The notes below the pieces were generated by a model. The model had not been told where the DNA came from. It did not search any database and saw only the letters and a list, made by a program, of their open reading frames with translations. Positions 37,344-55,936 of a stretch of DNA of 64,000 bases are shown one piece after another (position 1 is the first letter of the stretch; each line of letters opens with the position of its first letter). Both the position numbers and the translations under genes were made by a program. Origin of the DNA: Bacillus sp. DTU_2020_1000418_1_SI_GHA_SEK_038 (GTDB lineage: Bacteria; Bacillota; Bacilli; Bacillales; Cytobacillaceae); the NCBI RefSeq assembly GCF_032341175.1, contig NZ_CP135435.1, forward strand, positions 1,984,001 to 2,048,000. The letters are read 5' to 3'.

Positions 37344-37358
37344 ACGATAAATTTACGT
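37344..37358. promoter_or_regulatory. Operator-like motif 1 (upstream of paaA)
   Basis: The 15-mer ACGATAAATTTACGT has ACG and CGT arms around a 9-bp A/T core. It differs from the importer site at 42460 by only one base. A TAATAT -10-like element lies just upstream (37333-37338). It is a possible PaaX binding site. Confidence 0.5.
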
Positions 37359-37451
37359 TATATAAATTTTCTTGAAGCATAAATATTTATATTCAAGCAA
37401 GCGAATTGCATGACGTTATAGAAAATTCATTAATATTTGGGGGTGAGTAAT

Positions 37452-38414: not shown

Positions 38415-38446
38415 TTTTATGAAAAATTTTGATAGGAGGAGACTCT

Positions 38447-39605: not shown

Positions 39606-39624
39606 GAAGAGGGATTGATTAAGT

Positions 39625-40119: not shown

Positions 40120-40145
40120 ATACAATTTGAAGGGAAGAAAATAAT

Positions 40146-41314: not shown

Positions 41315-41353
41315 CATTCTATCTATATGAAATGAAGTGAGGAATGAAGGTAA

Positions 41354-42229
41354 TTGAATACTAGATCAATGATTTTTACTTTATATGGAGACTATATATC
41401 GCATTATGGCAGTAAAATTTGGATTGGAAGTTTAATTCGGTTATTAAATGAGTTTGGTCATAATGATCAATCTGTTCGGGCAGCTATTTCTAGGATGAAT
41501 AAGCAAGGCTGGGTTCAGTCCGATAAAGTCGGCAATAAAAGCTATTATTCTTTAACAGACCGCGGTCAAAAAAGGATTGATGAGGCAGCTAAAAGGATAT
41601 TTAAGCTTATGCCGGAAAAATGGGATGGGCAGTGGAGAATATTAATGTACACTATTCCAGAGGAAATTCGGACAGTTAGGGATGAACTTAGAAAAGAATT
41701 AGTCTGGAGCGGATTTGGCTCCTTATCTAATAGCTGCTGGATATCAGCCAATAATCTTGAAAATCATGTGAATGAAATAATTGATAAATATGATATCGGT
41801 CAATATGTCGATTTTTTTATCGCAAAATATGAGGGGCCGCATGATAATTTCCGTTTAGTTGAAAAGAGCTGGAACTTAGAGGATATTAATTCCAAGTATC
41901 AAGTGTTCATTTCCGAATATAGTCAGAAATATATCATCGATAAAAATAAAATTCAAAAGGGACAAATGTCTGATGCAGAATGCTTTGTGGAAAGGACAAA
42001 GCTCGTCCATGAATATAGAAAATTCTTGTTTGTTGATCCAGGACTGCCTGAAGAGTTGCTTCCTGAAAAATGGTTAGGCAGCCACGCTGCATCATTGTTT
42101 AGTGAGTATTATAAAGAATTGGCAAAGCCAGCTTCCCGTTTTTTTGAGGCTGTGTTTAGAGAAGGAAATGAGATTAAGCACAAGGATGTTCATTATGATG
42201 TGCTCGATCACCCATATATTGTTGAATAG
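41354..42229 (+). CDS. paaX: PaaX family transcriptional repressor
   Basis: PaaX represses phenylacetate genes and is released by phenylacetyl-CoA. The 291 residues show the PaaX layout: N-terminal winged helix (SMIFTLYGDYISHYGSKIWIGSLIRLLNEFGHNDQSVRAAISRMNKQGWVQSDKVGNKSYYSLTDRG), a central Cas2-like domain beginning WDGQWRILMYTIPEEIRTVRDELRKEL, and a C-terminal PaaX_C region (HEYRKFLFVDPGLPEELLPEKWLG). The start is TTG after GAATGAAGG. Transcribed separately between the paa operon and the importer operon. Confidence 0.92.
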   Translation: MNTRSMIFTLYGDYISHYGSKIWIGSLIRLLNEFGHNDQSVRAAISRMNKQGWVQSDKVGNKSYYSLTDRGQKRIDEAAKRIFKLMPEKWDGQWRILMYTIPEEIRTVRDELRKELVWSGFGSLSNSCWISANNLENHVNEIIDKYDIGQYVDFFIAKYEGPHDNFRLVEKSWNLEDINSKYQVFISEYSQKYIIDKNKIQKGQMSDAECFVERTKLVHEYRKFLFVDPGLPEELLPEKWLGSHAASLFSEYYKELAKPASRFFEAVFREGNEIKHKDVHYDVLDHPYIVE

Positions 42230-42428: not shown

Positions 42429-42477
42429 TTGACTATCAGCTTCGTAAAATGATAATATAACGATATATTTACGTTAT
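42429..42477 (+). promoter_or_regulatory. Importer promoter with operator-like motif 3
   Basis: TTGACT (42429-42434), an 18-bp spacer and TAATAT (42453-42458) form a promoter. Directly downstream is the perfect inverted repeat ATAACG-N9-CGTTAT (42457-42477), whose central 15-mer ACGATATATTTACGT is nearly identical to the site before paaA. Confidence 0.6.
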
Positions 42478-42579
42478 CCATGTTATTTATCATATAAATT
42501 CAGCATCTTCATACATAGGTAGTCCACGCTGCTATTTTTGCAGTGTTTAATATTTATTAAAAAGAGGGGGTATTTCAAG

Positions 42580-43638
42580 ATGAAAAGGTCTTTAAAAGTT
42601 TTATTCTTCCTATTGGCAGCAGTACTGCTCATGCTTAGTGCATGTGGAAAAGAGGAGGCAGTCCAACCTGCTGAGGCTGAAAAGGGAAAAGAGGAGGCAG
42701 CCCAACCTGCTGAGGCCGAAAAAGAAAAAGAACAGGAAAAGCACAAGATTGGCATTACCCAGTTTGTTGCCCACCCTTCCTTAGATGCAGCAACAGAAGG
42801 ATTTAAAAAGGCATTAGAGGATGAAGGATTTAAAGAAGGGGAAAATGTCGAATATAATTTCCAAAATGCACAGGCAGATATGAATAACACACAGACGATT
42901 GCCAATAACTTTGTTGGTGATAAGGTTGATTTAATTTTTGCTAATGCTACTCCAAGTGCTGTTAGTGCACTAAATGCTACAAGGGATATACCAATTTTAT
43001 TTACATCTGTAACGGATCCTGTAGGAGCGGGACTTGTAGAAGCATTCGATAAACCAGGCGATAATATTACAGGTACAACGGACAATCATCCGGAAGGCAC
43101 CGCAAAAACGATTCATTTTATCATTGATGAAGCTGGAGCGCAGACGATTGGTGTCATATTTAATGCGGGTGAACAGAATTCAGAGGTGCAGGTGGCAGAA
43201 GTGAAGAAGCTTGCTGAAGCGAAGGGTGCAACGATCGTTGAAGCTTCCGTATCAACATCTGCCGAAGTAAAGCAGGCTACTGAATCATTAGTAGGCAGAG
43301 TAGATGCCATTTATGTCCCGACAGATAATACGGTTGTTTCCGCCTTAGAATCTGTTATATCTGTTGCAGATAGCGAGAAGCTGCCGCTATTCGTAGGAGA
43401 GCTTGACTCTATGAAGCGTGGAGCAGTTGCAGCAAGCGGATTTAGCTATTATGATCTCGGCTACCAGACTGGAAAAATGGCTGCAGAAATTTTAAAAGGA
43501 AATAAAAAGCCATCTGAAATTCCTGTTGAGCTTCCAAGCAGTTTAACATTAATGATTAATAAGAAAGCGGCTGAACAGCAAGGGCTTGAAGTTAAGCAAG
43601 AATGGGAGAAAATTGCGGAGTTTTATGAAGGCGAATAA
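42580..43638 (+). CDS. ABC transporter substrate-binding lipoprotein (TrpX/ABC_sub_bind type)
   Basis: The protein starts with a lipoprotein signal (KVLFFLLAAVLLMLSACG, lipobox LSAC) and a duplicated acidic linker, then a type I periplasmic binding fold of the ABC_sub_bind family (IGITQFVAHPSLDAATEGFKKALEDEGFKEGENVEYNFQNAQADMNNTQTIANNF). Members with this gene order import Trp/Tyr-like compounds in streptococci. By context the ligand is probably phenylalanine, tyrosine or a derivative. I start at the ATG at 42580 after AGAGGGGG. First gene of a three-gene importer operon. Confidence 0.88.
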   Translation: MKRSLKVLFFLLAAVLLMLSACGKEEAVQPAEAEKGKEEAAQPAEAEKEKEQEKHKIGITQFVAHPSLDAATEGFKKALEDEGFKEGENVEYNFQNAQADMNNTQTIANNFVGDKVDLIFANATPSAVSALNATRDIPILFTSVTDPVGAGLVEAFDKPGDNITGTTDNHPEGTAKTIHFIIDEAGAQTIGVIFNAGEQNSEVQVAEVKKLAEAKGATIVEASVSTSAEVKQATESLVGRVDAIYVPTDNTVVSALESVISVADSEKLPLFVGELDSMKRGAVAASGFSYYDLGYQTGKMAAEILKGNKKPSEIPVELPSSLTLMINKKAAEQQGLEVKQEWEKIAEFYEGE

Positions 43639-43656
43639 CAGAGGGTGTGATTCATA

Positions 43657-44670
43657 ATGTTCACGGCAGTATTTGGAGCGTTTGAAGCTGGAATTATCTA
43701 TGCGATTATGGCACTCGGAGTTTATTTGTCCTTCCGAGTGCTGGATTTTCCAGACTTAACGGTAGATGGAAGCTTTGTAACTGGTGCGGCTGTTGCAGCG
43801 ACAATGATTGTTAGCGGGATAAATCCATTTCTTGCCACTGTTTTCGCACTTATTGCTGGGTTTGCTGCAGGCTGTATTACGGGGGTCCTTCATACGTTTG
43901 GGAAGATCAATGCACTCCTATCTGGGATATTAATGATGATTGCTCTTTATTCGATAAATCTCCGAATTATGGGGAAATCAAATGTACCGTTATTGAATAC
44001 AGAAACAGCTATGACTAATGTTAGAGAAACTTGGGATAAAACGGGATTAGACTCCATTTTTAATAGTATTCTTTCTGCAGTAGGGCTTGGAGACAGCTTG
44101 CCAAGGTCATGGGGTATTTTAATTTTCATGGTGATTGTTACCTTTTTGTTAAAATTCCTGACAGATAAATTCCTCCAGACCGAAATTGGTCTGGCCATTA
44201 GAGCGACTGGGGACAATAAGCGAATGATTAGAAGCTTATCAGCCAATACAAATTTAACTGTCATTCTAGGACTTGGCATTTCCAACTCCATGGTTGCATT
44301 TTCTGGAGCACTTATCGCTCAGCAGGGTGGCTTTGCTGATGTTGGTATGGGTATTGGGATGATTATTATTGGTCTGGCATCAGTCATAATCGGAGAGGCT
44401 CTGTTTGGAACAAAAACAATTGCAAGAACAACGTTAGCGGTTATCGGTGGCGCGATCATTTACCGAATCGTTGTGACACTTGCTTTGAGGGTAGATTTCC
44501 TTGAACCTGGTGATATGAAATTAATTACTGCAACCATTGTTATTTTAGCACTCATTCTTCCAAAAATAATTGATTCTTCAAAAGAGAAAAAGCGGAAAGC
44601 GAGAAAGCAGGCGGAGAGTTTGGCTTTAAGCAATATTCCTTCAGATAGAAAGGAGGGGCCATATGCTTGA
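43657..44670 (+). CDS. ABC transporter permease (TrpY-like)
   Basis: The 337-residue membrane protein has about eight to nine hydrophobic helices and the BPD_transp_2-type blocks AIMALGVYLSFRVLDFPDLTVDGSFVTGAAVAA and GLAIRATGDNKRMIRSLSANTNL. It would form the channel for the lipoprotein's ligand. It starts 18 nt after the binding-protein gene and overlaps the ATPase gene by 8 nt. Confidence 0.9.
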   Translation: MFTAVFGAFEAGIIYAIMALGVYLSFRVLDFPDLTVDGSFVTGAAVAATMIVSGINPFLATVFALIAGFAAGCITGVLHTFGKINALLSGILMMIALYSINLRIMGKSNVPLLNTETAMTNVRETWDKTGLDSIFNSILSAVGLGDSLPRSWGILIFMVIVTFLLKFLTDKFLQTEIGLAIRATGDNKRMIRSLSANTNLTVILGLGISNSMVAFSGALIAQQGGFADVGMGIGMIIIGLASVIIGEALFGTKTIARTTLAVIGGAIIYRIVVTLALRVDFLEPGDMKLITATIVILALILPKIIDSSKEKKRKARKQAESLALSNIPSDRKEGPYA

Positions 44671-45457
44671 GCTCAAACACATTCATAAAGTTTTTAATGA
44701 AGGAACACCTGACGAAAAAATTGCCTTGGATCGTATTCATTTAAAGTTAAATAAAGGAGATTTTGTTACCGTAATCGGCAGTAATGGGGCTGGGAAATCT
44801 ACCTTAATGAATATGATCTCTGGCGTCATGATACCTGACGTTGGCACTGTATCGATTGATAGACAGAATGTTACGATGATGTCGGAATACAAAAGAGCAA
44901 AGTTAATCGGACGTGTGTTTCAAGACCCGATGGCTGGAACAGCTCCGAGTATGACGATTGAAGAAAATTTAGCAATGGCTTATTCCAGAAATAAGCAGAG
45001 AACGTTAAGAAAAGGGGTTACGAAGAAGCGAAAGGAATATTTTCAAGAAGTGCTCCAATCGCTTCATCTTGGGTTAGAAAACCGGCTCACGGCCAAAGTT
45101 GGATTGCTGTCAGGTGGGGAAAGGCAGGCGCTATCATTATTGATGGCCACGTTTACGGAGCCAGCCATTCTTTTGCTTGATGAGCATACAGCCGCCCTTG
45201 ACCCAGCACGTGCCGAGCTTATCACGAATTTAACAAAGGAAATTGTCGAAAAATACAATTTGACGACATTAATGGTCACACATAATATGCAGCAGGCACT
45301 TGATTTAGGAAATAGACTAATCATGATGGATAAAGGTCAAATTATCCTGGAGGTTGAAGAAGATCAAAAAGGAAACTTGACGATCGAACAGTTATTAAAT
45401 GAGTTTCAGAGAATTCGAGGTTCGAAAATGGCAAGTGATCGGGCTCTACTATCTTAA
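44663..45457 (+). CDS. ABC transporter ATP-binding protein (TrpZ-like)
   Basis: The 264-residue ATPase has Walker A GSNGAGKST, Q-loop VFQDPM, signature LSGGERQALSLLMA and Walker B ILLLDEHTAALDP with the H-loop VTHNMQ. In the signature region the motif reads L-S-G-G-E-R. It energises the importer. A GGAGG ribosome binding site lies in the end of the permease gene, and a terminator follows at 45472. Confidence 0.93.
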   Translation: MLELKHIHKVFNEGTPDEKIALDRIHLKLNKGDFVTVIGSNGAGKSTLMNMISGVMIPDVGTVSIDRQNVTMMSEYKRAKLIGRVFQDPMAGTAPSMTIEENLAMAYSRNKQRTLRKGVTKKRKEYFQEVLQSLHLGLENRLTAKVGLLSGGERQALSLLMATFTEPAILLLDEHTAALDPARAELITNLTKEIVEKYNLTTLMVTHNMQQALDLGNRLIMMDKGQIILEVEEDQKGNLTIEQLLNEFQRIRGSKMASDRALLS

Positions 45458-45471
45458 TATTGAATATAAAA

Positions 45472-45514
45472 AAGGGATTAATTAGGCGTTATTCACTAAT
45501 TAATCCTTTTTATT
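45472..45514 (+). terminator. Terminator of the importer operon
   Basis: The stem GGATTAATTAG / CTAATTAATCC with a 10-nt loop is followed by TTTTTATT. Confidence 0.8.
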
Positions 45515-45568
45515 ATGTATTGGCCATATAATCAAGAAGAAAGAATTTTTTAAACTTTTACAATTTAT

Positions 45569-45614
45569 TGACTATTCGTTATACGAAATGGTATCATATC
45601 GTTAATTAAACGTC
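45569..45614 (+). promoter_or_regulatory. Promoter of the thioesterase-PheDH-dehydrogenase operon with operator-like motif 4
   Basis: TTGACT (45569-45574), an 18-bp spacer and TATCAT (45593-45598) are followed by TCGTTAATTAAACGT (45600-45614), again CG-N9-CG immediately after the -10. The architecture copies that of the importer promoter at 42429. Confidence 0.55.
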
Positions 45615-45648
45615 ATACTTATTATTGTATAAACTATGGAGGGATCGA

Positions 45649-46032
45649 ATGAAACCAGGTTTAACGGCAGGTTATTCGGTTACGATTGAGGCAGTAGTGA
45701 CTCGTGAAATGTTTGCTCAATTTGAAGGGAAAATGGTTCATCCAACCTATTCGACCGTAATGATGATTTACCATATGGAATGGGCGTCTAGGCAAATCAT
45801 TTTGCCTTTTTTAGAAGAGCATGAGGAGGGAATGGGGTTGTCTGTTTCCGCTAAACATATATTGCCGGCTCGGGAAGGATCTAAATTGAACATAAAGGCA
45901 GTCCTAACTGAAAAGAAAGACAATAAGATTATTACCGATGTTTTTGTTATCAATGATACTAAGCTAATTGGCACTGGGGAGGTTACGCAGGTAATTCTTC
46001 CGAAAGCGAAAATTAAGAGCATGCTAGCATAA
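45649..46032 (+). CDS. Hotdog-fold acyl-CoA thioesterase (FlK-like)
   Basis: The 127-residue protein has the single hotdog fold pattern seen in FlK-type thioesterases: MKPGLTAGYSVTIEAVVTREM, HPTYSTVMMIYHMEWASRQIILPFLEEHEEGMGLSVSAKHILPAREGS. Such enzymes hydrolyse acyl-CoA esters. In classical paa operons the hotdog thioesterase PaaI releases CoA from stalled intermediates; this gene may play the same part here, which is inference. The ATG at 45649 follows GGAGGGATC. Confidence 0.75.
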   Translation: MKPGLTAGYSVTIEAVVTREMFAQFEGKMVHPTYSTVMMIYHMEWASRQIILPFLEEHEEGMGLSVSAKHILPAREGSKLNIKAVLTEKKDNKIITDVFVINDTKLIGTGEVTQVILPKAKIKSMLA

Positions 46033-46092
46033 TTATCATGCTATTTACTAATCTGTTTTTATATTAACAGCAAACCTAAAGATGACTCAGTT

Positions 46093-46106
46093 TGTAAGCG
46101 TTAACA
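46093..46106 (+). promoter_or_regulatory. cre site (CcpA operator) before the PheDH gene
   Basis: TGTAAGCGTTAACA matches the Bacillus cre consensus TGWAANCGNTNWCA at every defined position. It lies 23 nt before the dehydrogenase start codon, where bound CcpA would block initiation or act as a roadblock within the operon. Confidence 0.7.
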
Positions 46107-46128
46107 TAATCGTTAGGGGGAAATGTTC

Positions 46129-47235
46129 ATGAATATGTTTTCGAAGATAAAAGACCATGAACAGGTTGTGTTTTGTAATGATGAATTAACTGGCTTAAAG
46201 GCTATTATTGCTATCCATAGTACAAAGCTAGGTCCAGCCCTAGGCGGCTGCAGGATGCTCCCTTATTCAAGTGAAGAGGAGGCGCTTGAAGATGTACTGC
46301 GTCTTTCGCGAGGTATGACATACAAATGCGCTGCTGCGGATGTTGATTTTGGCGGCGGAAAAGCAGTTATTATTGGCGACCCTCATAAAGATAAGACACC
46401 GGAGCTATTCCGTGCGTTCGGGCAGTTCGTAGAATCATTGAATGGCAGATTCTATACGGGTACAGATATGGGAACTTCACCAGATGATTTCATTCATGCG
46501 TTAAGGGAAACGAATTGTATCGTTGGCGTTGATGAGGTTTACGGGGGAAGCGGGGACTCTTCTGTGCCGACTGCACAAGGCGTTATTTATGGAATTCAAG
46601 CAACAAATAAAATATTAACAGGCTCTGATCAACTAAGCGGAAAAAGCTATGTGGTCCAGGGACTTGGTAAAGTGGGATTCAAGGTTGCAGAAAGGCTGCT
46701 GGAGGATGGAGCAGATTTATACGTGTCCGATATCAATCAGCAAGCAATCAATAGGCTGCTATCTAAAGCGAAAACATTAGGAGCCACAGTAAAAGTTTTA
46801 TCGAGTGATGAGATCTATGAGGCTAACGCAGATATCTTTATTCCATGTGCAATGGGTGGCATTATTAATGACGAAACCATTCAGTATCTATCTGTAAAGG
46901 CCGTTGTCGGTTCAGCGAATAACCAGCTTTTGGAGCTTCATCATGCACAAAAGCTAATGGATAAAGGGATTTTATTTGCTCCTGATTATATTGTCAACTC
47001 CGGTGGTTTAATTCAAGTAGCAGATGAACTGTATACACCGAATAAAGAAAGAGTCCTGCAAAAAACAAAAGCCATTTATAACTCTTTACTCCATATTTAC
47101 GAGTATGCAAATGCGGAAGGAATAACAACAGTGGAAGCGGCTAATCAATTTTGTGAAAAACGTATTGAAGCGCGAGCACGCAGAAATAGCTTTTTTTCTC
47201 ATAAGAAGCGTCCAAAATGGGCAGTGAGAACGTAA
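46129..47235 (+). CDS. pdh: Phenylalanine dehydrogenase (Glu/Leu/Phe/Val DH family)
   Basis: The enzyme oxidatively deaminates L-phenylalanine to phenylpyruvate with NAD+. The 368 residues have the catalytic [17 protein letters not shown] (Lys), [12 protein letters not shown] and a Rossmann GLGKVG. Beyond the family core, the [24 protein letters not shown] stretch and the C terminus [23 protein letters not shown] closely resemble bacillar phenylalanine dehydrogenases rather than leucine dehydrogenases. The likely start is the ATG at 46129, about 9 nt after AGGGGGAA; the ATG at 46123 is an alternative. No terminator separates it from the thioesterase gene upstream or E1 alpha downstream. Confidence 0.82.
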
Positions 47236-47330
47236 TTTTTTAATGTAATAACAACATTAATAATGTGATAATATTTTTTTGTTTTTGTGCCCTAATAGGT
47301 TCTAAATAATATAAAGCAAAGGGTGAGAAA

Positions 47331-48401
47331 ATGGACAGTCAGTTTCCAGTGCTTCAAGTAATGGATCCAAACGGACAAATAGCAGCACCCCAATATAAGG
47401 AGAAGATTACAGAGGAATTGGCCAGAAACTTTTATAGGCAGCTCGTTAGAATCCGCCTTTTTGATCGGAAGGCGGTAAGCCTGCAGCGACAAGGAAGGAT
47501 AGGCACATATGCACCATTCGAAGGGCAGGAGGCTTCACAGGTAGGTAGTGCTCTTGCATTAAACGAATGGGATTGGATGTTTCCAACGTACCGTGACCAT
47601 GGGGCAGCCTTTGTTTTTGGCCACTCATTAAGGAATATTCTTTTATTTTGGAATGGCCGAAACGAAGGGTGTATCCCTCCAGCGGGAAAAAAGATTTTCC
47701 CTCCAGGTATCCCGATTGCCACCCAGATTCCTCACGCAGCAGGGGCCGCCTTAGCAGAAAAGAAAAAGGGAACAACCAATGCAGCCATTGCTTACTTCGG
47801 TGATGGTGCCACATCTGAAGGGGACTTTCATGAAGGGCTTAATTTCGCGAGTGTATTTAAAGCACCTGTCGTTTTCTTTAATCAAAATAATCAATTTGCC
47901 ATTTCAGTTCCAATTGACAAGCAAATGAATTCTAAGACGATTGCCCAAAAGTCCTTAGCCTATGATATTCCTGGTGTCCGGATCGATGGAAACGATGTTT
48001 TCATTGTTTATTTTGAAACGTTAAAGGCTTTGGAGAGAGCGAGAAAGGGTAATGGACCGACATTAATTGAAGCTGTCACCTGGAGATATGGGGCTCATAC
48101 GACCGCTGATGACCCATCGAAATACCGCTGCCAAGTAGAGAGCAATAACCGCCGAACAGAAACAGATCCTATTCTTCGCCTTGAAAAGTGGATGAAAAAT
48201 GAAGGATTATATGATGAAAAATGGTTGCGTGATGTGGAAGCGGAAGCCACACAGGAAATTGAGAAAGCAGTTGAAGAAATGGAAGATCTTCCTCCCGCAG
48301 ATCCTGCTAATATATTTGATCATGTCTTTGCGGAGCCAACATGGCAAATCGCTCAGCAAAAAGAAGAGTATCTTAGATTCATAGGGGGTGAAGGGAGATG
48401 A
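47331..48401 (+). CDS. 2-oxoacid dehydrogenase E1 component, alpha subunit
   Basis: The thiamine-diphosphate E1 alpha subunit decarboxylates a 2-oxoacid and acylates the lipoyl arm of E2. The 356 residues show the thiamine motif GDGATSEGDFHEGLNFASVFKAPVVFFNQNNQFAIS and the RYGAHTTADDPSKYR block. By family it resembles pyruvate/branched-chain E1 alpha. Beside phenylalanine dehydrogenase and paa genes, phenylpyruvate is the natural candidate substrate (inference). It overlaps E1 beta by 4 nt. Confidence 0.9.
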   Translation: MDSQFPVLQVMDPNGQIAAPQYKEKITEELARNFYRQLVRIRLFDRKAVSLQRQGRIGTYAPFEGQEASQVGSALALNEWDWMFPTYRDHGAAFVFGHSLRNILLFWNGRNEGCIPPAGKKIFPPGIPIATQIPHAAGAALAEKKKGTTNAAIAYFGDGATSEGDFHEGLNFASVFKAPVVFFNQNNQFAISVPIDKQMNSKTIAQKSLAYDIPGVRIDGNDVFIVYFETLKALERARKGNGPTLIEAVTWRYGAHTTADDPSKYRCQVESNNRRTETDPILRLEKWMKNEGLYDEKWLRDVEAEATQEIEKAVEEMEDLPPADPANIFDHVFAEPTWQIAQQKEEYLRFIGGEGR

Positions 48402-49393
48402 GTACGGCAATCAAAACAAAAACGTTCACACTCATACAAGCCATTACTGATGCTCTGGATACAATGCTTGAGGAAAGATCCGAAGTACTGCTCTTAGGAG
48501 AGGACATCGGAAAAAATGGCGGAGTATTTCGCGCTACTGAAGGACTTCAAGAGAAATACGGCGCTGACCGGGTTATTGATACACCTTTAAGTGAAGCGGG
48601 GTTCGTTGGAGCAGGAATTGGTATGGCGGTTAATGGATTTTTACCTGTCATAGAAATTCAGTTTCTTAGCTTTATTTATCCAGCCTATGAACAAATCATG
48701 ACACATGCTTCTAGACTACGGATGAGGACGATGGGGCATTTTACTGTTCCAATGGTCATTCGTGCCCCATACGGAGCGGGAGTCAGGGCTCCCGAAATCC
48801 ATTGCGATAGTCCAGAAGCAATATTTACCCATATGCCAGGAATAAAGGTCGTATGCCCGTCCAGTCCTTATGATGCTAAGGGTTTGCTTATTGCAGCAAT
48901 TGAAGATCCAGATCCTGTATTATTTATGGAACCAATGAGGTGTTACCGAGCTGGCAAGGAAGAGGTGCCAGAAGGAAAATACAAAATAGAAATTGGTAAA
49001 GGAAAAAAAATGCTGGAAGGGGACGATGTGTCCATCATTACTTGGGGAGCGATGGTTCCGGTTGTCATGAAAGCAGCGAAAGAAATGCAGATTCAAGGCA
49101 TTCATTGTGATGTGATCGATTTAAGAACCTTATACCCGATCGATAAAGAGATCATTGCTGAATCGGTCCAAAAAACAGGCCGGACAGTTATTGTTCATGA
49201 GGCACATGCCACTGGTGGGGTTGGAAATGATGTATTAGCCATCATCAATGACACATCGTTTTTATATCAAAAAGCGCCAGCAGAAAGGGTTACTGGATTT
49301 GATGCCCCTGTTCCATACTTTGGTTTTGAGGATCATTATTTACCAACGGCAGATCGAGTGAAATTTGCCATTCATAAAGTCATGTCGTTCTAG
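48398..49393 (+). CDS. 2-oxoacid dehydrogenase E1 component, beta subunit
   Basis: The 331-residue transketolase-like beta subunit forms the alpha2beta2 E1 with the preceding gene. Typical blocks are LLGEDIGKNGGVFRATEGLQEKYGADRVIDTPLSEAGFVGAGIGMAVNG, RMRTMGHFTVPMVIRAPYGAGVRAPEIHCDSPEAIF and the C-terminal transketolase_C region with VIVHEAHATGGVGNDV. The ATG overlaps the end of the alpha gene, which indicates tight coupling. Confidence 0.92.
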   Translation: MSTAIKTKTFTLIQAITDALDTMLEERSEVLLLGEDIGKNGGVFRATEGLQEKYGADRVIDTPLSEAGFVGAGIGMAVNGFLPVIEIQFLSFIYPAYEQIMTHASRLRMRTMGHFTVPMVIRAPYGAGVRAPEIHCDSPEAIFTHMPGIKVVCPSSPYDAKGLLIAAIEDPDPVLFMEPMRCYRAGKEEVPEGKYKIEIGKGKKMLEGDDVSIITWGAMVPVVMKAAKEMQIQGIHCDVIDLRTLYPIDKEIIAESVQKTGRTVIVHEAHATGGVGNDVLAIINDTSFLYQKAPAERVTGFDAPVPYFGFEDHYLPTADRVKFAIHKVMSF

Positions 49394-49403
49394 GAGGGAA
49401 GGA

Positions 49404-50615
49404 ATGGAAGTCAAATTACATGATATTGGAGAAGGAATGACCGAAGCAGACATTAATTGCTTTTTAGTAAAGGCAGGTGATTTTGTCCGAGCCGATGAAC
49501 CTATCATTGAAATACAAACAGACAAAATGACTGCGGAAATTCCTGCCCCGCGCACTGGGTATATTCGAGAGTTTAAAGTAGAAATCGGGCAGACCGTTCC
49601 TGTTGGAACAACTTTATTAATCTTGGAAGAAGAAGGCAGCTTAAATAAACAACCGATATCACCCGCTACAATGACAGTTGATCATTCTATGACGAATGTA
49701 AAAGATTATAAAAAACGTATTCTCGCATCACCGTATACAAGGAAAATTGCGAGAGAAAACGGGATAAATATTGAAGTTGTTAAGGGGTCTGGTCCAGCCG
49801 GAAGAATTACTGATGAAGATATTTATCAATTAATGGCTTCTTCACAACAACAGGATTCGGAGAGAAACAGCCAGCCCACAAGAAATACGACAATCGCACC
49901 TGCAGAACTACCCCCATTAAAATCAGACACCATTCCTTTCAGAGGCAGAAGAAAGCAAATCGCGAAAAAAATGGTTCAATCCTTAAATACGATTCCCCAT
50001 TGTACTCATTTTGAAGAAGTAGATGTTACGGAACTGATTCAATTTCGAGCGGAATTAAAGAATATCAATCAAACGATTACAGCAACTGCCTTTTTCATAA
50101 AGGCTTTGTCTGTATGTCTTACGGAATTTCCGATTTTTAATGCTCGGCTTGACGAGGAAAATGAGGTGATTCATCTTCTAAAAGAACATCATATCGGAAT
50201 GGCGGTGGATGCGGAAGATGGTCTTATCGTTCCCGTGCTTCGCCATGTGGAGAAAAAATCAATACGAGCCATTCATGACGAAATGAAAATAGTTACGGAA
50301 AAAGCATTAGCCAATAAATTAAGCATGAAGGATATAACAGGCGGAACGTTTACGATTAGTAATGTTGGCCCCCTTGGTGGAAGCTTTGGGGCAACGCCGA
50401 TTATTCAGCATCCTGAAGTGGCGCTTGTATCCTTCCATAAGACGAAGAAAATGCCTGTAGTGACAGAGGATGATCAAATTGTGATCCGGTCTATCATGAA
50501 TATTTCAATGTCCTTCGATCATCGGGTGGCAGACGGGGCGAGTGCTGTCCGTTTTACAAACAGATTTGCACAATTCATTCAAAATCCAAAAATGCTTTTG
50601 CTGGAGTTGGTTTAG
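49404..50615 (+). CDS. 2-oxoacid dehydrogenase E2, lipoyl acyltransferase
   Basis: The 403-residue E2 has an N-terminal lipoyl domain with the lipoylated Lys in IQTDKMTAEI (about residue 42), a linker, a peripheral subunit-binding domain (ASPYTRKIARENGINIEVVKGSGPAGRITDEDI, about 110-145) and the catalytic acyltransferase domain ending in SFDHRVADGA, which holds the HxxxD active site. Only one lipoyl domain is present. It transfers the acyl group to CoA. I use the ATG at 49404 after AGGAGGGAAGG. The E3 gene starts at the base after its stop codon. Confidence 0.93.
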   Translation: MEVKLHDIGEGMTEADINCFLVKAGDFVRADEPIIEIQTDKMTAEIPAPRTGYIREFKVEIGQTVPVGTTLLILEEEGSLNKQPISPATMTVDHSMTNVKDYKKRILASPYTRKIARENGINIEVVKGSGPAGRITDEDIYQLMASSQQQDSERNSQPTRNTTIAPAELPPLKSDTIPFRGRRKQIAKKMVQSLNTIPHCTHFEEVDVTELIQFRAELKNINQTITATAFFIKALSVCLTEFPIFNARLDEENEVIHLLKEHHIGMAVDAEDGLIVPVLRHVEKKSIRAIHDEMKIVTEKALANKLSMKDITGGTFTISNVGPLGGSFGATPIIQHPEVALVSFHKTKKMPVVTEDDQIVIRSIMNISMSFDHRVADGASAVRFTNRFAQFIQNPKMLLLELV

Positions 50616-52046
50616 ATGGTTGTCGGCGACCTTGCCCATGAACGTGATTTAGTAATTATTGGCGGTGGACCAGGAGGATATCATGCGGCTATTCGAGCTG
50701 CTCAGCTTGGGCAATCTGTTACCCTAATTGAAAAGGGGGAGCTTGGAGGTGTATGCCTAAATAAAGGCTGTATCCCGTCTAAAGTCCTGACCCATGGCGC
50801 CGCTGAATTTGCCTCATTTAAGGAAATAGATCAACTAGGAATAGAGATTAATAGTATTAAGTTTAATATGGATAAACTACAAGCTTACAAAAATAAAACG
50901 ATTACCCAGCTTCGAGATGGCGTCCTATCCTTATGTAAAGCGAATAAAATTGAAATTATAAAAGGATCCGCGTTTTTTCTTTCAGAAGAACGGATTGGTG
51001 TTGAAAATGGGGATCAATATGATATTTATCGTTTTAATCATGCAATCATCGCGACTGGAGGCTATCCGAAATCACCGGAGGGCATAAAGATTGATCATGA
51101 GAGAGTTCTAAATTCCTGGTCGATCACTAATCTTAAAGTAGTGCCCGAAAAGCTTTTCGTTTATGGTCATGACTATATTGCGTTAGAAATCGCCATGGCC
51201 TATAACTCTATTGGCTCTGAAGTTGTACTTATAAATGAACACGATGATTTCATGTTTGATTCATCCATTAACCGTGAGCTCATGCGAATATTAAAGAAAA
51301 AACAGATAGGGATCCTCAAAAACAACTTCATTTCAGAAGCATATACTAAGGATGAGGGAGTAACCATTTTTATTAAAAATAAGACAGGCACAGAGGAATT
51401 AAAGGGTTCGCATTTATTTGTTTCTGGCAGCAATACCCCAAACACTAATCATTTAGGAATAAATCGTATAGGTGTTGAAACGACAAAGAGCGGATTCATT
51501 GTCGTTAATCACGAGTGCCGTACTTCAAAGAATCATATATTTGCGATTGGCGATGTGACAGAAGGACCAAGTTTAGCCATTAAAGCCATTAAGCAGGGCA
51601 AGACAGCTGCGGAAGCAATCACAGGTATAAAGGCTGAAGCAGATTTGCGTTTTCTGCCAGTCATTGCTCATACTAGCCCTCCGATTGCCTATGTGGGTTT
51701 AACTGAGGAAGAAGCTATTAAGCAAGGGCACTCAGTTGAAACAGCGCAATTCCCGCTTTCAGGAAATGGCTATGCCGCCATCCTTGGAAAAAAAGATGGA
51801 TTGATTAAAGTAATATTTGATAAAGATAATGATCTTTTACTTGGCATACACATCATTGGGTATGGGGCCGTTGAACTAATTTCCAGCGGAGTGCTGTCGC
51901 TAGAGATGGCAGCAAGAGACGAGGATTTGCTGTTTCCGCTATACCCGCATCCAAGCATAAACGAGGGGTTACTAGAAGCAGTAGAAGCAATAAAGAACCA
52001 AGCCATCCATCTACCTCCAAATATGAGGAAAAAAATAAAGGTTTAA
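50616..52046 (+). CDS. Dihydrolipoyl dehydrogenase (E3)
   Basis: This flavoprotein reoxidises the E2 lipoyl group with NAD+. The 476 residues contain the FAD Rossmann GGGPGGYHAAIRAAQLG, the redox disulfide GVCLNKGCIPSK, a second nucleotide motif region (KLFVYGHDYIALEIAMAYNSIGSEV, unusually lacking the full GxGxxG), the FAIGDV block and the C-terminal HPSINEGL with the catalytic His. The NAD motif reads GHDYIALE where most family members have GGGYIGVE; this may affect cofactor binding. It is the last gene of the thioesterase-PheDH-E1-E2-E3 transcription unit. Confidence 0.9.
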   Translation: MVVGDLAHERDLVIIGGGPGGYHAAIRAAQLGQSVTLIEKGELGGVCLNKGCIPSKVLTHGAAEFASFKEIDQLGIEINSIKFNMDKLQAYKNKTITQLRDGVLSLCKANKIEIIKGSAFFLSEERIGVENGDQYDIYRFNHAIIATGGYPKSPEGIKIDHERVLNSWSITNLKVVPEKLFVYGHDYIALEIAMAYNSIGSEVVLINEHDDFMFDSSINRELMRILKKKQIGILKNNFISEAYTKDEGVTIFIKNKTGTEELKGSHLFVSGSNTPNTNHLGINRIGVETTKSGFIVVNHECRTSKNHIFAIGDVTEGPSLAIKAIKQGKTAAEAITGIKAEADLRFLPVIAHTSPPIAYVGLTEEEAIKQGHSVETAQFPLSGNGYAAILGKKDGLIKVIFDKDNDLLLGIHIIGYGAVELISSGVLSLEMAARDEDLLFPLYPHPSINEGLLEAVEAIKNQAIHLPPNMRKKIKV

Positions 52047-52169: not shown

Positions 52170-53288
52170 ATGAAAGAAAAAATAACGGCAAGCAAGGAAA
52201 AAGTGGAGGATTTTTTTCCTGTTAAGGAAGTTGATTATTTAGAAATTTACACAGGTAACGCCAAACAATCCTGTTACTTTTTTTGCTCTGCCTTTGGCTT
52301 TAAACCTGTGGCATATTCTGGACTGGAGACAGGCAATAGAGAAACTGTTTCCTATGTTCTTCAGCAAAGAAAGATCCGTCTAGTCATTACAGGATCCTTA
52401 ACTGAATCGAGCAGAGTCTCTTCTTTTGTGAAAAAGCATGGAGACGGAGTAAAGGATGTTGCTTTAACGGTAGATGATGTGGAGAAAGCATATAAAGAAG
52501 CTGTTTCAAGAGGGGCCATTGAAATTATGCCTCCGTTCGAAATCAAAGATGATCATGGTACTGTAAAAAAGGCAGTTATCGGAACATATGGAGATACGAT
52601 CCACACATTAGTAGAACGGAATAACTATACAGGGGTTTTCATGCCAGGCTACGAGCCATTTGCTATGAACATACCATTTGAAGATGCCGGCTTTATTGGA
52701 ATTGACCATGTGGTCGGCAATGTCGAAAGTATGGAAGAATGGGTTAATTATTATGCAAATGTTATGGGCTTTAAAGAGATGACACACTTCACGGACAAAG
52801 ATATTAGCACGGAATATTCTGCACTAATGTCAAAGGTCATGCATAATGGCGGCCGTATTAAATTCCCGATCAACGAGCCAGCTGAAGGAAAACGAAAATC
52901 ACAAATTGAAGAGTATCTAGAATTTTACAATGGACCTGGTGTTCAGCATCTGGCGCTTCTTACAGAAGATATTGTCAGTACGGTCAGCATCCTTCGCAAA
53001 AATGGAGTAGAATTCTTGAATACACCTGCCGCGTATTATGATGAGGCTTTATCAAAGCGTGTTGGAAAAATTGATGAGGAAATTGAAAAGCTGAAAGAAT
53101 TAAGCATTTTAGTAGATCGTGATGATGAGGGTTATTTACTGCAAATCTTTACGAAGCCAGTTGTTGATAGACCAACATTATTTATTGAAGTAATCCAGCG
53201 TAAAGGCGCAAGAGGATTTGGTGAAGGGAATTTCAAGGCTTTGTTTGAATCCATTGAACGAGAGCAGGAAAGAAGAGGTAATCTATAA
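52170..53288 (+). CDS. hppD: 4-hydroxyphenylpyruvate dioxygenase
   Basis: HPPD converts 4-hydroxyphenylpyruvate to homogentisate with Fe(II) and O2. The 372-residue protein has two VOC-type halves. The iron ligands lie in the second half: His in IGIDHVVGNV, His in VQHLALLTEDI and Glu in TLFIEVIQRKGARGFGEGNFKALFESIE, the C-terminal family signature. First gene of the tyrosine/homogentisate operon; the ribosome binding site is AGGGGGAG. Confidence 0.95.
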   Translation: MKEKITASKEKVEDFFPVKEVDYLEIYTGNAKQSCYFFCSAFGFKPVAYSGLETGNRETVSYVLQQRKIRLVITGSLTESSRVSSFVKKHGDGVKDVALTVDDVEKAYKEAVSRGAIEIMPPFEIKDDHGTVKKAVIGTYGDTIHTLVERNNYTGVFMPGYEPFAMNIPFEDAGFIGIDHVVGNVESMEEWVNYYANVMGFKEMTHFTDKDISTEYSALMSKVMHNGGRIKFPINEPAEGKRKSQIEEYLEFYNGPGVQHLALLTEDIVSTVSILRKNGVEFLNTPAAYYDEALSKRVGKIDEEIEKLKELSILVDRDDEGYLLQIFTKPVVDRPTLFIEVIQRKGARGFGEGNFKALFESIEREQERRGNL

Positions 53289-53292
53289 CTTT

Positions 53293-54408
53293 ATGGTCAA
53301 AATCAAAACAAAAAGTATACTAGAAGAAATTCAATCATATCCCCTTGGACTTTCGCAAAAGGAAATAAAAGAGAAGTACAGTCTTAATAGAGTATGGAAA
53401 ATGTCTGATAATGAAAACGTTTATGGGTGCCCGCCAAAGGTAAAAGAGGCTATCTATCAGCATCTGCAAACGCTTCATTTATATCCTGACGGAAATACCT
53501 CTGAGTTAGTAAGCAGGCTCGCTAATTTTTACCACGTTGAGGAGGATCAGCTTATTGCTGGCAACGGATCAGACGAAATTATTAGAATGCTTACCCGAGC
53601 TTATATCAATAAAGGTGATGAGGCTATAATGGCTGATATCACCTTTCCCCGATATGAAACGAATGTTGTGATAGAGGGCGGGACATCGGTCAAAGTCCCT
53701 TTGGCAAACGGAGTTCATCATTTAACAGCTATGCTTAATATGATTACACCAAAAACTAAAATAATCTTTATTTGCAACCCTAATAATCCTACAGGAACAA
53801 TTGTAGGAAATGAGGAATTAAATAACTTTATTGAAAACATTCCGGAAAATATCCTGATTGTTCTAGATGAGGCTTATTACGAATATGTGACATCCCAGGA
53901 TTATTTACAATCCATCCCTCTTCTGAGTAACCATCCGAATTTAATTATTTTAAGGACCTTTTCGAAAATATATGGGCTTGCTGGGCTGCGTGTCGGCTAC
54001 GGAATGATGCATCCTTCCATTGTAAAAGAACTGCATAAAGTAAGGGAAGTGTTTAATGTAAACGTGCTGGCGCAGGCAGCTGCTGTTCAGGCACTTAAAG
54101 ACCGCGAGTTTATCACGGTATGTGCTGAAAAAAATGCTGTGGAAAGAAAATTTGTCTCTGATGGGCTCCGTAATTTTGAAATAGAATTTTTTCCTTCCGA
54201 AGCAAATTTTCTATTCGTTTACAGCCAGCATCCCATTTCGAAAAAGTTAATTTCGAATGGTTTTCTTGTCCGGCCAATGAAGCTCAGCGGCTACACTGAC
54301 GCATTTAGAATCACTTTAGGTACAAGGAGCGATAATGAAGCTTTCCTGCATGTCCTTAGCCAAATAATAAATGATGGGCGGTGTGAGGGTGGAAATATCA
54401 CCAGGTAA
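53293..54408 (+). CDS. HisC-like aminotransferase, probably for tyrosine/phenylalanine
   Basis: This is a pyridoxal-phosphate class I/II aminotransferase of 371 residues in the histidinol-phosphate/aromatic group. Visible are NENVYGCPPKV, AGNGSDEII, ICNPNNPTGTIV, VLDEAYYEY and the PLP Lys in TFSKIYGLAGLRVGYG. HisC-type enzymes often act on Tyr and Phe, and the position between hppD and homogentisate genes implies tyrosine to 4-hydroxyphenylpyruvate. The ATG at 53293 follows GAGGTAA in the end of hppD. Confidence 0.85.
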   Translation: MVKIKTKSILEEIQSYPLGLSQKEIKEKYSLNRVWKMSDNENVYGCPPKVKEAIYQHLQTLHLYPDGNTSELVSRLANFYHVEEDQLIAGNGSDEIIRMLTRAYINKGDEAIMADITFPRYETNVVIEGGTSVKVPLANGVHHLTAMLNMITPKTKIIFICNPNNPTGTIVGNEELNNFIENIPENILIVLDEAYYEYVTSQDYLQSIPLLSNHPNLIILRTFSKIYGLAGLRVGYGMMHPSIVKELHKVREVFNVNVLAQAAAVQALKDREFITVCAEKNAVERKFVSDGLRNFEIEFFPSEANFLFVYSQHPISKKLISNGFLVRPMKLSGYTDAFRITLGTRSDNEAFLHVLSQIINDGRCEGGNITR

Positions 54409-55009
54409 TCTTGATTGGAGAGAGGCATATAAGCTATTAGTTGGTTCTATTTTACCGCGCCCAATTGCATTTGTTACAACGATTGATGATAAAGGAATTG
54501 TCAATGCAGCTCCATTTAGCTTCTTCACAGCCATCTGTGCAGACCCTTTGCTGATTTGCTTCTCGCCGATGAGAAGAGGGACGGACGGAGCAAAAAAAGA
54601 CACACTTACAAACATTGAAACTACAAAAGATTTCGTTATTAATATTGTCAGCGAAGATTTTGTGGAAAAGATGAATATGTGTGCAACTGAGTTTCCTTCT
54701 GAGATAGACGAAATGGAAGTAGCGGGCCTTACGAAATTAAAAAGCCATAGTGTAAAGCCTCCAAGAATAGGAGAGTCAAAGATCCACCTTGAATGTACGC
54801 TGTACGAAGCTCTTCACTTTGGCGAACAGGCAGGATCTGGCAGTCTAGTCATTGGAAAGGTTGAGCATGTTCATGTTGCCGATGAACTCTATGAAAAGGG
54901 AAGAATAAACTCGGAGAAATTAAAGCCTATCGGCCGGCTTGCAGGTCAATTGTATACGAAGCCATTGGCAGATATGTTTGAATTAATCCGTAAAATAAAT
55001 CCAGGGTGA
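54371..55009 (+). CDS. Flavin reductase family (FMN-binding split barrel) protein
   Basis: The 212-residue protein has the flavin_reductase-type split-barrel pattern LLVGSILPRPIAFVTTIDDKGIVNAAPFSFFTAICADPLLICFSPM. Related FMN-binding proteins occur in aromatic degradation clusters; the reaction here is unknown. It overlaps the aminotransferase gene by 38 nt if the first ATG is used; downstream GTG codons at 54383 and 54389 are possible starts, and none has a clear ribosome binding site. It could supply electrons to an oxygenase in the locus; this is speculation. Confidence 0.8.
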   Translation: MMGGVRVEISPGNLDWREAYKLLVGSILPRPIAFVTTIDDKGIVNAAPFSFFTAICADPLLICFSPMRRGTDGAKKDTLTNIETTKDFVINIVSEDFVEKMNMCATEFPSEIDEMEVAGLTKLKSHSVKPPRIGESKIHLECTLYEALHFGEQAGSGSLVIGKVEHVHVADELYEKGRINSEKLKPIGRLAGQLYTKPLADMFELIRKINPG

Positions 55010-55013
55010 TGAT

Positions 55014-55922
55014 ATGAAATTTGTAACCTTTCAAAAAGAGGACGGTTGTATTAGAGCGGGCTGGATGATTGGGCATAGCCATGTGATGGATATGCATGAA
55101 GCTTCAAAAGGAGTACTGCCTAAAGATATGCTTTCTTTTTTGGAAAACCATCCATTCTTCCTAAATTATATTTCTACAATGATAACTACAGATTATGGCG
55201 TGTATCCCCTTGAAAAAGTGATACTTAAAGCGCCGCTGCCAAACCCTAAAAGCTTTCGAGATTTTTATGCATTTGAAGAACATGTAAAAACCGCTAGAGA
55301 AAATCGCGGTCTAGAAATGATTCCAGAATGGTATGATATTCCCGTCTTTTACTTTTCTAATCATTTAGCCATTAAAGGGCCGAATGAAATGATCACTAGA
55401 CCAAAACATTGTCATTGGCTTGATTATGAATTGGAAATTGCTTGCGTGATTGGGAAGGAAGGAACGGACATTGAGGCTAAGAATGCGGATGATTATATTT
55501 TTGGCTATTGCATTTTAAACGACTGGAGTGCTCGAGATATTCAGAGAAAAGAAATGAAGGTTGGACTAGGTCCTGCGAAAGGAAAGGACTTTGCAACATC
55601 GATAGGTCCTTACATTGTTACTAAGGATGAATTAGAAAAGTACCGCGTTGAAAATGGGTATGACTTAACGATGACAGCGATGGTGAATAATGTTCTGCTT
55701 TCAGAAGGGAATATGAGTGATATTTATTATTCATTTGCTGAAATGATTGAAAGGGCATCAGACGGAGTAACCCTGTATCCTGGTGACTTAATTGGTTCTG
55801 GAACAGTGGGGAGCGGCTGTATATTAGAGCTCGGAACAGATGTCCACCGCTGGCTGGAGCCTGGTGATGAAGTCGAACTAGAAATAACCGCACTCGGTGC
55901 TTTAAAAAACATTATCTTATAA
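55014..55922 (+). CDS. Fumarylacetoacetate hydrolase family protein
   Basis: The last step of homogentisate breakdown releases fumarate and acetoacetate. The 302 residues have the FAH catalytic core: FYAFEEHV, KHCHWLDYELEIACVIGKEG, ILNDWSARDIQRKEMKVGLGPAKGKDFATSIGP and DLIGSGTVGSGCILELG. Metal ligands Asp/Glu are in the DYELE and NDWSARD blocks. The gene is 5 nt after the flavin reductase gene and 15 nt before the dioxygenase gene. Context supports fumarylacetoacetase activity. Confidence 0.9.
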   Translation: MKFVTFQKEDGCIRAGWMIGHSHVMDMHEASKGVLPKDMLSFLENHPFFLNYISTMITTDYGVYPLEKVILKAPLPNPKSFRDFYAFEEHVKTARENRGLEMIPEWYDIPVFYFSNHLAIKGPNEMITRPKHCHWLDYELEIACVIGKEGTDIEAKNADDYIFGYCILNDWSARDIQRKEMKVGLGPAKGKDFATSIGPYIVTKDELEKYRVENGYDLTMTAMVNNVLLSEGNMSDIYYSFAEMIERASDGVTLYPGDLIGSGTVGSGCILELGTDVHRWLEPGDEVELEITALGALKNIIL

Positions 55923-55936
55923 AGTGAGGTGGAACA

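What the first reader, a model, noticed from the sequence alone, without database searches (positions are those of the whole stretch)
45649..52046. A PheDH + 2-oxoacid dehydrogenase operon that may make phenylacetyl-CoA directly from phenylalanine
One apparent transcription unit holds a hotdog thioesterase, phenylalanine dehydrogenase and a complete E1 alpha/E1 beta/E2/E3 complex, between paaX/importer genes and hppD. No terminator is visible in the gaps. PheDH gives phenylpyruvate, and the complex could decarboxylate it oxidatively to phenylacetyl-CoA, the substrate of PaaABC. This would be a route that needs no PaaK ligase and no free phenylacetate. Family functions are established; the substrate of the complex is inferred from context only.
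Basis: partly seen in the sequence, partly recalled or inferred. Interest (0 to 1): 0.75.

Follow-up and report, generated by a model that had tools for sequence, protein, structure and literature searches.

The report
Phenylalanine-to-phenylacetyl-CoA dehydrogenase operon in Bacillales
A Bacillus relative carries a conserved gene set that most likely turns the amino acid phenylalanine straight into phenylacetyl-CoA, the fuel of the phenylacetate pathway, using an enzyme complex that databases label as an ordinary pyruvate dehydrogenase.

Summary
In detail: at 45649-52046 lie an FlK-type thioesterase, phenylalanine dehydrogenase (PheDH) and intact E1alpha, E1beta, E2 and E3 genes, behind a promoter-like site and a terminator-like hairpin. 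(1) This closed 4.47-Mb genome has no PaaK (best hit 120.7 bits; relatives 558-662) and has other E1s (PDH, BKD-like, OGDH-like). (2) In the 193 family genomes held, 80 of 81 with this E1alpha have PaaA. Of 92 PaaA+ genomes, 59 have complex and PaaK, 21 complex only, 12 PaaK only, none neither. (3) In the 80 best named loci (capped list), 70 hold PheDH, 67 paa genes, 22 HPPD. (4) A 41-nt motif before the operon recurs before the importer. (5) E1alpha forms its own group (support 81/85), with Thr in 80 of 80 where the PDHs and BKDs compared have Phe; a third E1 group shares the Thr. Against: PaaK is usually kept too (p = 0.061 for the exchange), and four Halobacillus/Oceanobacillus genomes have the complex without PaaA. 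The reaction has a precedent (PglB/PglC), so this is a new variant: a catabolic phenylpyruvate dehydrogenase complex. No assay exists.

The parts
37343..37363 (+). core operator-like site upstream of paaA
   Evidence: PWM trained only on relatives' thioesterase-gene upstreams: 13.3 bits, second highest place in the 64 kb; but 20 shuffles of 64 kb reach 14.9, so weak on its own
37437..40119 (+). paaABCD, 1,2-phenylacetyl-CoA epoxidase subunits and PaaD (37437-38414, 38429-38803, 38790-39605, 39625-40119)
   Evidence: NCBIfam TIGR02156, 02157, 02158, 02159, all over cut-off
40146..40457 (+). EthD-family protein between paaD and ech
   Evidence: TIGR02118 over cut-off; same position in relatives
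40447..41226 (+). enoyl-CoA hydratase (PaaF-like)
   Evidence: family clear, none of the 25 models shown over its cut-off
41354..42229 (+). PaaX regulator
   Evidence: TIGR02277 343 bits, cut-off 264.55
42440..42480 (+). 41-nt operator-like copy upstream of the importer
   Evidence: 20.3 bits; best of 20 shuffled 64-kb sequences 5.0
42580..45457 (+). ABC importer: TrpX-like binding protein 42580-43638, permease 43657-44670, ATPase 44663-45457
   Evidence: PF04392 and TrpX model NF041285 at 289.9 bits, below its 390 cut-off
45464..45518 (+). AT-rich hairpin followed by T's, terminator-like, between importer and operon
   Evidence: fold
45568..45619 (+). promoter-like TTGACT-18-TATCAT (45568-45597) overlapped by the conserved 41-nt motif (45579-45619)
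   Evidence: motif in 40 of 65 relatives' thioesterase-gene upstreams examined
45649..46032 (+). FlK-type hotdog thioesterase (PaaI-like role proposed)
   Evidence: PF22636 1e-30; nearest solved chain 2cwz of a thioesterase family protein, E 1.8e-25
46123..47235 (+). phenylalanine dehydrogenase
   Evidence: PF02812/PF00208; signature residues
47331..48401 (+). E1alpha of the proposed phenylpyruvate dehydrogenase complex
   Evidence: PF00676 5.5e-87; own group, support 81/85; Thr59, as in 80 of 80 relatives
48398..49393 (+). E1beta
   Evidence: PF02779/PF02780
49404..50615 (+). E2 acyltransferase: lipoyl, E3-binding and catalytic domains
   Evidence: PF00364/PF02817/PF00198
50616..52046 (+). 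E3 dihydrolipoyl dehydrogenase
   Evidence: TIGR01350 432.6 bits, cut-off 408.8
52170..57088 (+). adjacent tyrosine catabolism: HPPD, HisC-like aminotransferase, flavin reductase, FAH, homogentisate dioxygenase-like; not part of the conserved core (HPPD in 22 of 80 loci)

Best explanation
The operon encodes a dedicated phenylpyruvate dehydrogenase complex fed by PheDH. Phenylalanine enters through the neighbouring aromatic-amino-acid-type importer. PheDH deaminates it to phenylpyruvate. E1 (thiamine diphosphate) decarboxylates phenylpyruvate, E2 transfers the phenylacetyl group through lipoate to CoA, and E3 reoxidises lipoate with NAD+. The phenylacetyl-CoA goes straight to the epoxidase PaaABC, so neither free phenylacetate nor ATP-using PaaK is needed. 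The FlK-type thioesterase probably drains surplus phenylacetyl-CoA, as PaaI does in other bacteria. The operon is probably controlled together with the importer, and perhaps paaA, through one operator, PaaX being the likeliest regulator. Shown: genes, motifs, PaaK absence, co-occurrence, motif shared with the importer promoter, distinct E1 group. Inferred: E1 substrate, importer substrate, thioesterase role, regulator identity, flux.
For: No PaaK in the closed genome: 120.7 bits, against 558-662 for PaaK of relatives. Other E1s are present: PDH, BKD-like next to LeuDH, and a 953-aa OGDH-like frame. E1alpha orthologues: 80 of 81 carriers have PaaA, the exception being a 66%-complete genome; of 92 PaaA+ genomes 59 have both, 21 the complex only, 12 PaaK only, 0 neither. 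E1alpha and PheDH orthologues occur in the same 24 of 61 genomes. In 80 named loci the nearest labelled gene upstream of E1alpha is PheDH in 68. One lineage has PheDH-E1a-E1b-E2-amino acid permease-PaaK-paaA in a row and no HPPD in the 20-kb stretch (L065). Motif shared with the importer promoter. Separate group and signature. E1beta passes no PDH model's cut-off (best 284.9 vs 321). Reaction precedents: PglB/PglC; phenylpyruvate to phenylacetyl-CoA in Phaeobacter.
Against: No biochemistry. E1alpha passes NCBI's PDH equivalog cut-off (470.8 vs 411.35 bits) and its best solved relative is PDH. 59 of 80 complex+/PaaA+ genomes also keep PaaK; within PaaA+ genomes the association is only p = 0.061 before any correction for phylogeny. 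The E1 group itself has modest support (81/85). Thr59 also occurs in three sequences of another E1 group of unknown substrate. 4 of 12 searched genomes whose locus shows no paa genes lack PaaA altogether. The paaA core site is within the shuffle range, and the paaX site (5.3 bits) is weaker still. This genome lacks clustered thiolase, hydroxyacyl-CoA dehydrogenase and second hydratase genes that relatives have; a thiolase 73% identical lies elsewhere, but its best aldehyde dehydrogenase is only 48% identical to that of G016.
Confidence: 0.8

Rival explanations
1. A broader arylpyruvate dehydrogenase: the complex also, or mainly in some lineages, converts 4-hydroxyphenylpyruvate (or indolepyruvate) to the arylacetyl-CoA, which a thioesterase may release as the free acid.
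For: Three Halobacillus loci have a HisC-like aminotransferase in place of PheDH and two FAH-type genes nearby; in L146, the one looked at gene by gene, a tautomerase-like gene follows them (by eye). PaaA was not found in these three genomes. Thioesterases of two kinds (FlK-type, PaaI-like) lie next to E1/E2 genes. The importer is closest to the tryptophan type.
Against: Only 22 of 80 loci have HPPD, while 67 of 80 have paa genes; in this window tyrosine has its own HPPD route. Reading the FAH/tautomerase genes as homoprotocatechuate cleavage is recalled, not tested.
Confidence: 0.3
2. A second branched-chain oxoacid dehydrogenase.
For: JGI-given names of many relatives say 2-oxoisovalerate dehydrogenase. 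BCKDHs can have broad specificity (recalled).
Against: The genome has its own BKD-like operon next to LeuDH. E1alpha is only 35% identical to that E1alpha. PheDH signature, not LeuDH. Linked to paa genes.
Confidence: 0.06
3. A duplicate pyruvate dehydrogenase, as annotated.
For: TIGR03181 over its cut-off; every NCBI-given name among the 120 listed of 922 says pyruvate dehydrogenase; nearest solved structure is PDH.
Against: The genome's PDH is at another locus, 40% identical. The tree puts the PDHs in a separate group. Thr for Phe at position 59. Distribution follows PaaA.
Confidence: 0.05
4. The E1 acts as a plain phenylpyruvate decarboxylase giving phenylacetaldehyde, then phenylacetate; E2/E3 are incidental.
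For: B. badius has an extra E1alpha-E1beta pair with no E2 within its 21-kb locus (L168).
Against: E2 accompanies E1 in 78 of 80 loci. Phenylacetate would then need PaaK, absent here.
Confidence: 0.06

Closest known systems
PglB/PglC phenylpyruvate dehydrogenase of L-phenylglycine biosynthesis (Streptomyces pristinaespiralis)
   Same: E1alpha/E1beta of a PDH-like complex proposed to turn phenylpyruvate into phenylacetyl-CoA (PMC7089894 and PMC10685826, passages)
   Different: Antibiotic biosynthesis; the operon is given as pglA-E, without E2/E3 or PheDH genes in that list. Sequence kinship not tested
Direct phenylalanine to phenylacetyl-CoA conversion in Phaeobacter inhibens
   Same: Phenylpyruvate to phenylacetyl-CoA without free phenylacetate (PMC7497051, passage)
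   Different: Recalled to be a ferredoxin-type oxidoreductase (IorAB), a different enzyme family; serves tropodithietic acid formation
Bacillus-type pyruvate dehydrogenase complex (own PDH; 1w85)
   Same: Same four-component architecture; own PDH E1alpha 40% identical; 1w85 is the best solved match
   Different: Thr59/Thr86 against Phe/Gly; other locus; linked to paa genes
Branched-chain 2-oxoacid dehydrogenase (Thermus 1um9, own BKD-like E1)
   Same: Family; some residues as in Thermus, such as His90 and Pro128
   Different: Thr59 against Phe66; PheDH instead of LeuDH
Classical paa pathway with PaaK and PaaI
   Same: PaaABCD and PaaX; thioesterase companion
   Different: Entry by a dehydrogenase complex instead of an ATP-dependent ligase

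Membership tests
2-oxoacid dehydrogenase complexes | E1alpha/E1beta (TPP), lipoyl E2, E3 | tested here: met
   Pfam domains and motifs
Pyruvate dehydrogenase | TIGR03181 (E1alpha) over cut-off | tested here: met
   470.8 vs 411.35 bits; E1beta passes no PDH model's cut-off (best 284.9 vs 321)
Pyruvate dehydrogenase | groups with housekeeping PDH E1alpha | tested here: not met
   five PDH rows form their own clade (100/100); this group 81/85; own PDH at another locus, 40% identical
Branched-chain oxoacid dehydrogenase | groups with BKD and lies in the BKD/LeuDH operon | tested here: not met
   BKD-like operon elsewhere; 35% identity
Phenylpyruvate dehydrogenase (PglB/C type) | activity with phenylpyruvate, CoA and NAD+ | not testable with these tools
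   needs an assay; no PglB/C sequence was at hand
Phenylalanine dehydrogenase | Gly/Leu instead of Ala/Val at the specificity positions | tested here: met
   window and 71 of 71 relatives' hits, against own LeuDH; meaning of positions recalled
shared regulon | same operator before the operon and the importer | tested here: met
   importer 20.3 bits vs shuffle maximum 5.0
shared regulon | same operator before paaA and paaX | tested here: inconclusive
   core sites 13.3 and 5.3 bits, shuffle maximum 14.9
paa regulon | PaaX binds the operator | not testable with these tools
   needs a binding assay
PaaI-like phenylacetyl-CoA thioesterase (role) | hydrolyses phenylacetyl-CoA | not testable with these tools
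   hotdog FlK family; TTHA0967, recalled to be the 2cwz protein, lies in a Thermus operon repressed by PaaR

The most novel reading that the evidence does not exclude
A family of arylpyruvate dehydrogenase complexes, widespread in Bacillales and named pyruvate dehydrogenase in databases, is the normal entry of phenylalanine into the phenylacetate pathway there. It has let PaaK be lost in four genera of the family sampled, including all 8 complex+ genomes of genus g20. In halophilic lineages without PaaA it has been re-used for tyrosine via 4-hydroxyphenylacetyl-CoA.
Probability: 0.4. Interest if true: 0.75.

Novelty: new variant of a known kind. Interest (0 to 1): 0.62.

Why it matters
It would give phenylalanine catabolism in many Bacillales a redox-driven, ATP-saving entry (one NADH gained, no ATP to AMP) and explain how a PaaK-less genome can use the phenylacetate pathway. 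It would also correct the name of a large protein group: at least 922 clusters match this E1alpha at E <= 1e-100 (only the best 7997 candidates were scored), and among the 120 listed the names given are pyruvate or 2-oxoisovalerate dehydrogenase. It makes a clean prediction: PaaK-less strains of this kind should grow on phenylalanine but not on phenylacetate.

Tried and rejected
Strict PaaK replacement was rejected: 59 of 80 complex+/PaaA+ genomes keep PaaK. A tyrosine (HPPD) pathway as the main partner was rejected: HPPD in 22 of 80 loci. Thr59 as a marker unique to this group was rejected: it also occurs in L030, L031 and L033. A literature source for the Thermus pocket residues was sought and not found, so their role is recalled. 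Searches (wrong regular expression) gave nothing. Searches for print on this operon or reaction. Judged by titles and abstract beginnings, none listed a paper on a Bacillales PheDH-2-oxoacid dehydrogenase-paa route; six papers were opened, for passages only; the library lacks most subscription journals and preprints. No structure prediction was run. Wider taxonomic sampling did not complete.
Full report
What is there. The window is G000:C1:1984001-2048000 of a closed 4,468,467-base genome; its nearest named relatives are Bacillus sp. FJAT-29937 and Cytobacillus records. On the + strand at 45649-52046 lie an FlK-family hotdog thioesterase, PheDH, E1alpha, E1beta, E2 and E3, with their catalytic motifs (motif meanings recalled). 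Upstream are paaABCD, an EthD protein, an enoyl-CoA hydratase, PaaX and an importer whose binding protein resembles TrpX but stays below that model's cut-off. Downstream are HPPD, an aminotransferase, a flavin reductase, FAH and a divergent homogentisate dioxygenase-like gene. A terminator-like hairpin at 45464-45518 follows the importer, and a promoter-like site at 45568-45597 precedes the thioesterase-to-E3 unit.

Is there another entry to phenylacetyl-CoA? The PaaK model TIGR02155 finds at most 120.7 bits in this genome. PaaK genes of relatives, often next to paaA, score 558 to 662 bits. The 120.7-bit protein is a distant, shorter homologue (393-aa ORF); I cannot exclude that it, or another AMP-forming ligase, acts on phenylacetate. 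The genome has four E1_dh hits: this one; one in a BKD-like operon next to a LeuDH; a PDH; and a 953-aa frame, OGDH-like by size. A pyruvate or branched-chain role is therefore already covered.

Co-occurrence. In 61 genomes of the family, E1alpha orthologues (68% identity or more, fragments included) and PheDH orthologues (69% or more) occur in the same 24 genomes. Extending to all 193 genomes held for the family, this one included (tallied): E1alpha (E <= 1e-100) in 81, PaaA in 92, PaaK (at least 558 bits) in 71. 80 of 81 E1alpha genomes have PaaA; the exception is 66% complete. Of the 92 PaaA+ genomes, 59 have both the complex and PaaK, 21 the complex only, 12 PaaK only, and none neither. 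Fisher's test gives 6e-40 for E1alpha with PaaA, and 0.061 for E1alpha with PaaK within PaaA+ genomes. Neither is corrected for shared ancestry, and the second is not significant. The 21 lie in four genera (10 in g1, 8 in g20, 2 in g9, 1 in g17). Five are single-contig assemblies (G000, G020, G048, G053, G070), so absence is not an assembly gap there. Of these, G048 carries a PaaK in two pieces and a PaaA with a stop, and G020, G053 and G070 hold 295-314-bit distant homologues. G031, one of the 12 PaaK-only genomes, has a copy whose E1alpha is split over two frames.

Neighbourhoods. Within the fetched flanks (10 kb at most), E1beta is present in 80 of 80, E2 in 78, PheDH (58% identity or more) in 70, the thioesterase in 66, at least one of paaA-D/X/K in 67, E3 in 59, the importer's binding protein in 49, HPPD in 22. 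PheDH is the nearest labelled gene upstream in 68. 62 have both PheDH and paa genes, 5 neither. In the 61-genome sample, six PaaA+ genomes lack the complex; in five PaaK is the gene just upstream of paaA, in the sixth (G058) one frame lies between. G041 has PheDH-E1a-E1b-E2-amino acid permease-PaaK-paaABCD in a row and no HPPD in the 20-kb stretch, which ties the complex to phenylalanine and phenylacetyl-CoA rather than to HPPD. Results that do not fit a simple paa role: of 13 loci without paa genes in range, 12 could be searched; 8 genomes have PaaA elsewhere and in 4 it was not found (three Halobacillus, one Oceanobacillus; their completeness was not told). The three Halobacillus loci carry an aminotransferase in place of PheDH and two FAH-type genes, hinting at 4-hydroxyphenylpyruvate.

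Regulation. I read the upstream regions by eye first, the window's included, and wrote the search expression from them. Of 65 relatives' thioesterase-gene upstreams examined (L089, a near-copy, left out), 40 match. A matrix from their 32 distinct copies gives two hits above 3 bits in the 64-kb window: its own operon (51.7, expected) and the importer promoter at 42440 (20.3); 20 Markov shuffles reach at most 5.0. The 21-nt core also hits upstream of paaA (13.3) and weakly upstream of paaX (5.3), but core hits are weak evidence: shuffles reach 14.9, and a 10.3-bit hit at 61821 and an 8.5-bit hit inside the ATPase gene look like chance. In the 80 loci, 193 core hits of 8 or more fall before the thioesterase gene (82, mostly the training set), the importer (35), a nitronate-monooxygenase-like gene (19), paaX (8), paaA (6), PheDH (3), thiolase (2); 18 lie elsewhere, 17 inside genes and 3 before other genes. 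PaaX is the nearest regulator and the likely binder, untested.

Specificity signals. The 80 relatives and the window fall together (support 81/85, below the tree tool's own threshold for a firm branch), apart from PDH, from a 44-47%-identity E1 group and from BKD (midpoint root, long outgroup branches). At E1alpha position 59 the relatives have Thr in 80 of 80, where the five PDHs compared, own BKD and Thermus E1b have Phe (Thermus Phe66); at position 86 they have Thr (76) or Ser (4), where PDH has Gly and own BKD and Thermus have Tyr. I recall Phe66, Tyr95, beta-Tyr86 and beta-His129 as substrate-pocket residues of Thermus E1b; no held paper confirmed this. Loss of the Phe ring would fit a bulkier substrate, but all three members of the 44-47% group share the Thr, so this is a hint, not a proof.

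Thioesterase. Its only solved match is 2cwz, which I recall as Thermus TTHA0967. TTHA0967, called hypothetical, is in a Thermus operon with PaaI and phenylacetyl-CoA ligase that is repressed by PaaR (PMC6651687, passages). That fits a phenylacetyl-CoA safety-valve role.

Known or new. Phenylpyruvate to phenylacetyl-CoA by a PDH-like complex is proposed for PglB/PglC in phenylglycine biosynthesis, and direct conversion is reported for Phaeobacter. The two review passages seen start the phenylacetate pathway with PaaK as a rule. No paper listed in ten searches described the Bacillales operon, judged by titles and abstract beginnings (listed under Tried and rejected). Names given to this E1alpha among 120 listed relatives are pyruvate or 2-oxoisovalerate dehydrogenase. 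I file it as a new variant of a known kind: the biochemistry has precedent, while the catabolic operon, its spread and the PaaK-less genomes appear undescribed in what I could search.

Weak points. No assay; phylogenetic non-independence; the genome's own lower paa pathway is scattered (a thiolase 73% identical lies elsewhere, no close aldehyde dehydrogenase; hydroxyacyl-CoA dehydrogenase and second hydratase not searched for); PaaE was not searched for.

Noticed in passing
window 37437-42229: Compared with same-genus relatives (G017, G037) the paa cluster here lacks PaaK, the second enoyl-CoA hydratase, hydroxyacyl-CoA dehydrogenase, thiolase and the nitronate-monooxygenase-like gene; L089, a 92% relative, shows the same gap between ech and the importer.
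   Followed up: partly
L146, L153, L164 around 8.8-18 kb: Halobacillus: HisC-like aminotransferase-E1a-E1b-E2 with two FAH-type genes nearby (in L146 also a Na+/H+ antiporter and a tautomerase-like gene), and no PaaA found in the genome; possibly a tyrosine version of the route.
   Followed up: partly
L168 9947-12058: Bacillus badius carries, beside its PheDH-OADH-paa operon (L142), a second E1alpha-E1beta pair with no E2 nearby.
   Followed up: no
L030, L031, L033: Another E1 group (44-47% identical) shares Thr59; L030 and L031 have a TetR-type regulator and an iron-alcohol-dehydrogenase-like gene nearby (read by eye). Substrate unknown.
   Followed up: no
L093, L104: Records titled Pseudomonas sp. 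ISL-84 and Chryseobacterium sp. ISL-80 carry Bacillales-type OADH loci; probably mislabelled or contaminated assemblies.
   Followed up: no
L066 (G048 4392000-4411900): E1a and E2 are broken in the locus, and PaaA and PaaK of the same genome are also interrupted; either pathway decay or assembly errors.
   Followed up: no
window 40146-40457: An EthD-family protein sits between paaD and ech here and in relatives, and no paaE is seen in the window's cluster; it may hint at a different electron supply to the epoxidase.
   Followed up: no
window 13930-14026 and 24446-26338: A selenocysteine tRNA and a SelB-like elongation factor frame (by eye): this Bacillales genome may use selenocysteine.
   Followed up: no
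window 55937-57088: The homogentisate dioxygenase-like protein scores only 70 bits against hmgA (cut-off 510.75): a divergent family.
   Followed up: no
window 16175-17452: An IS110-like transposase gene (read by eye from the ORF).
   Followed up: no
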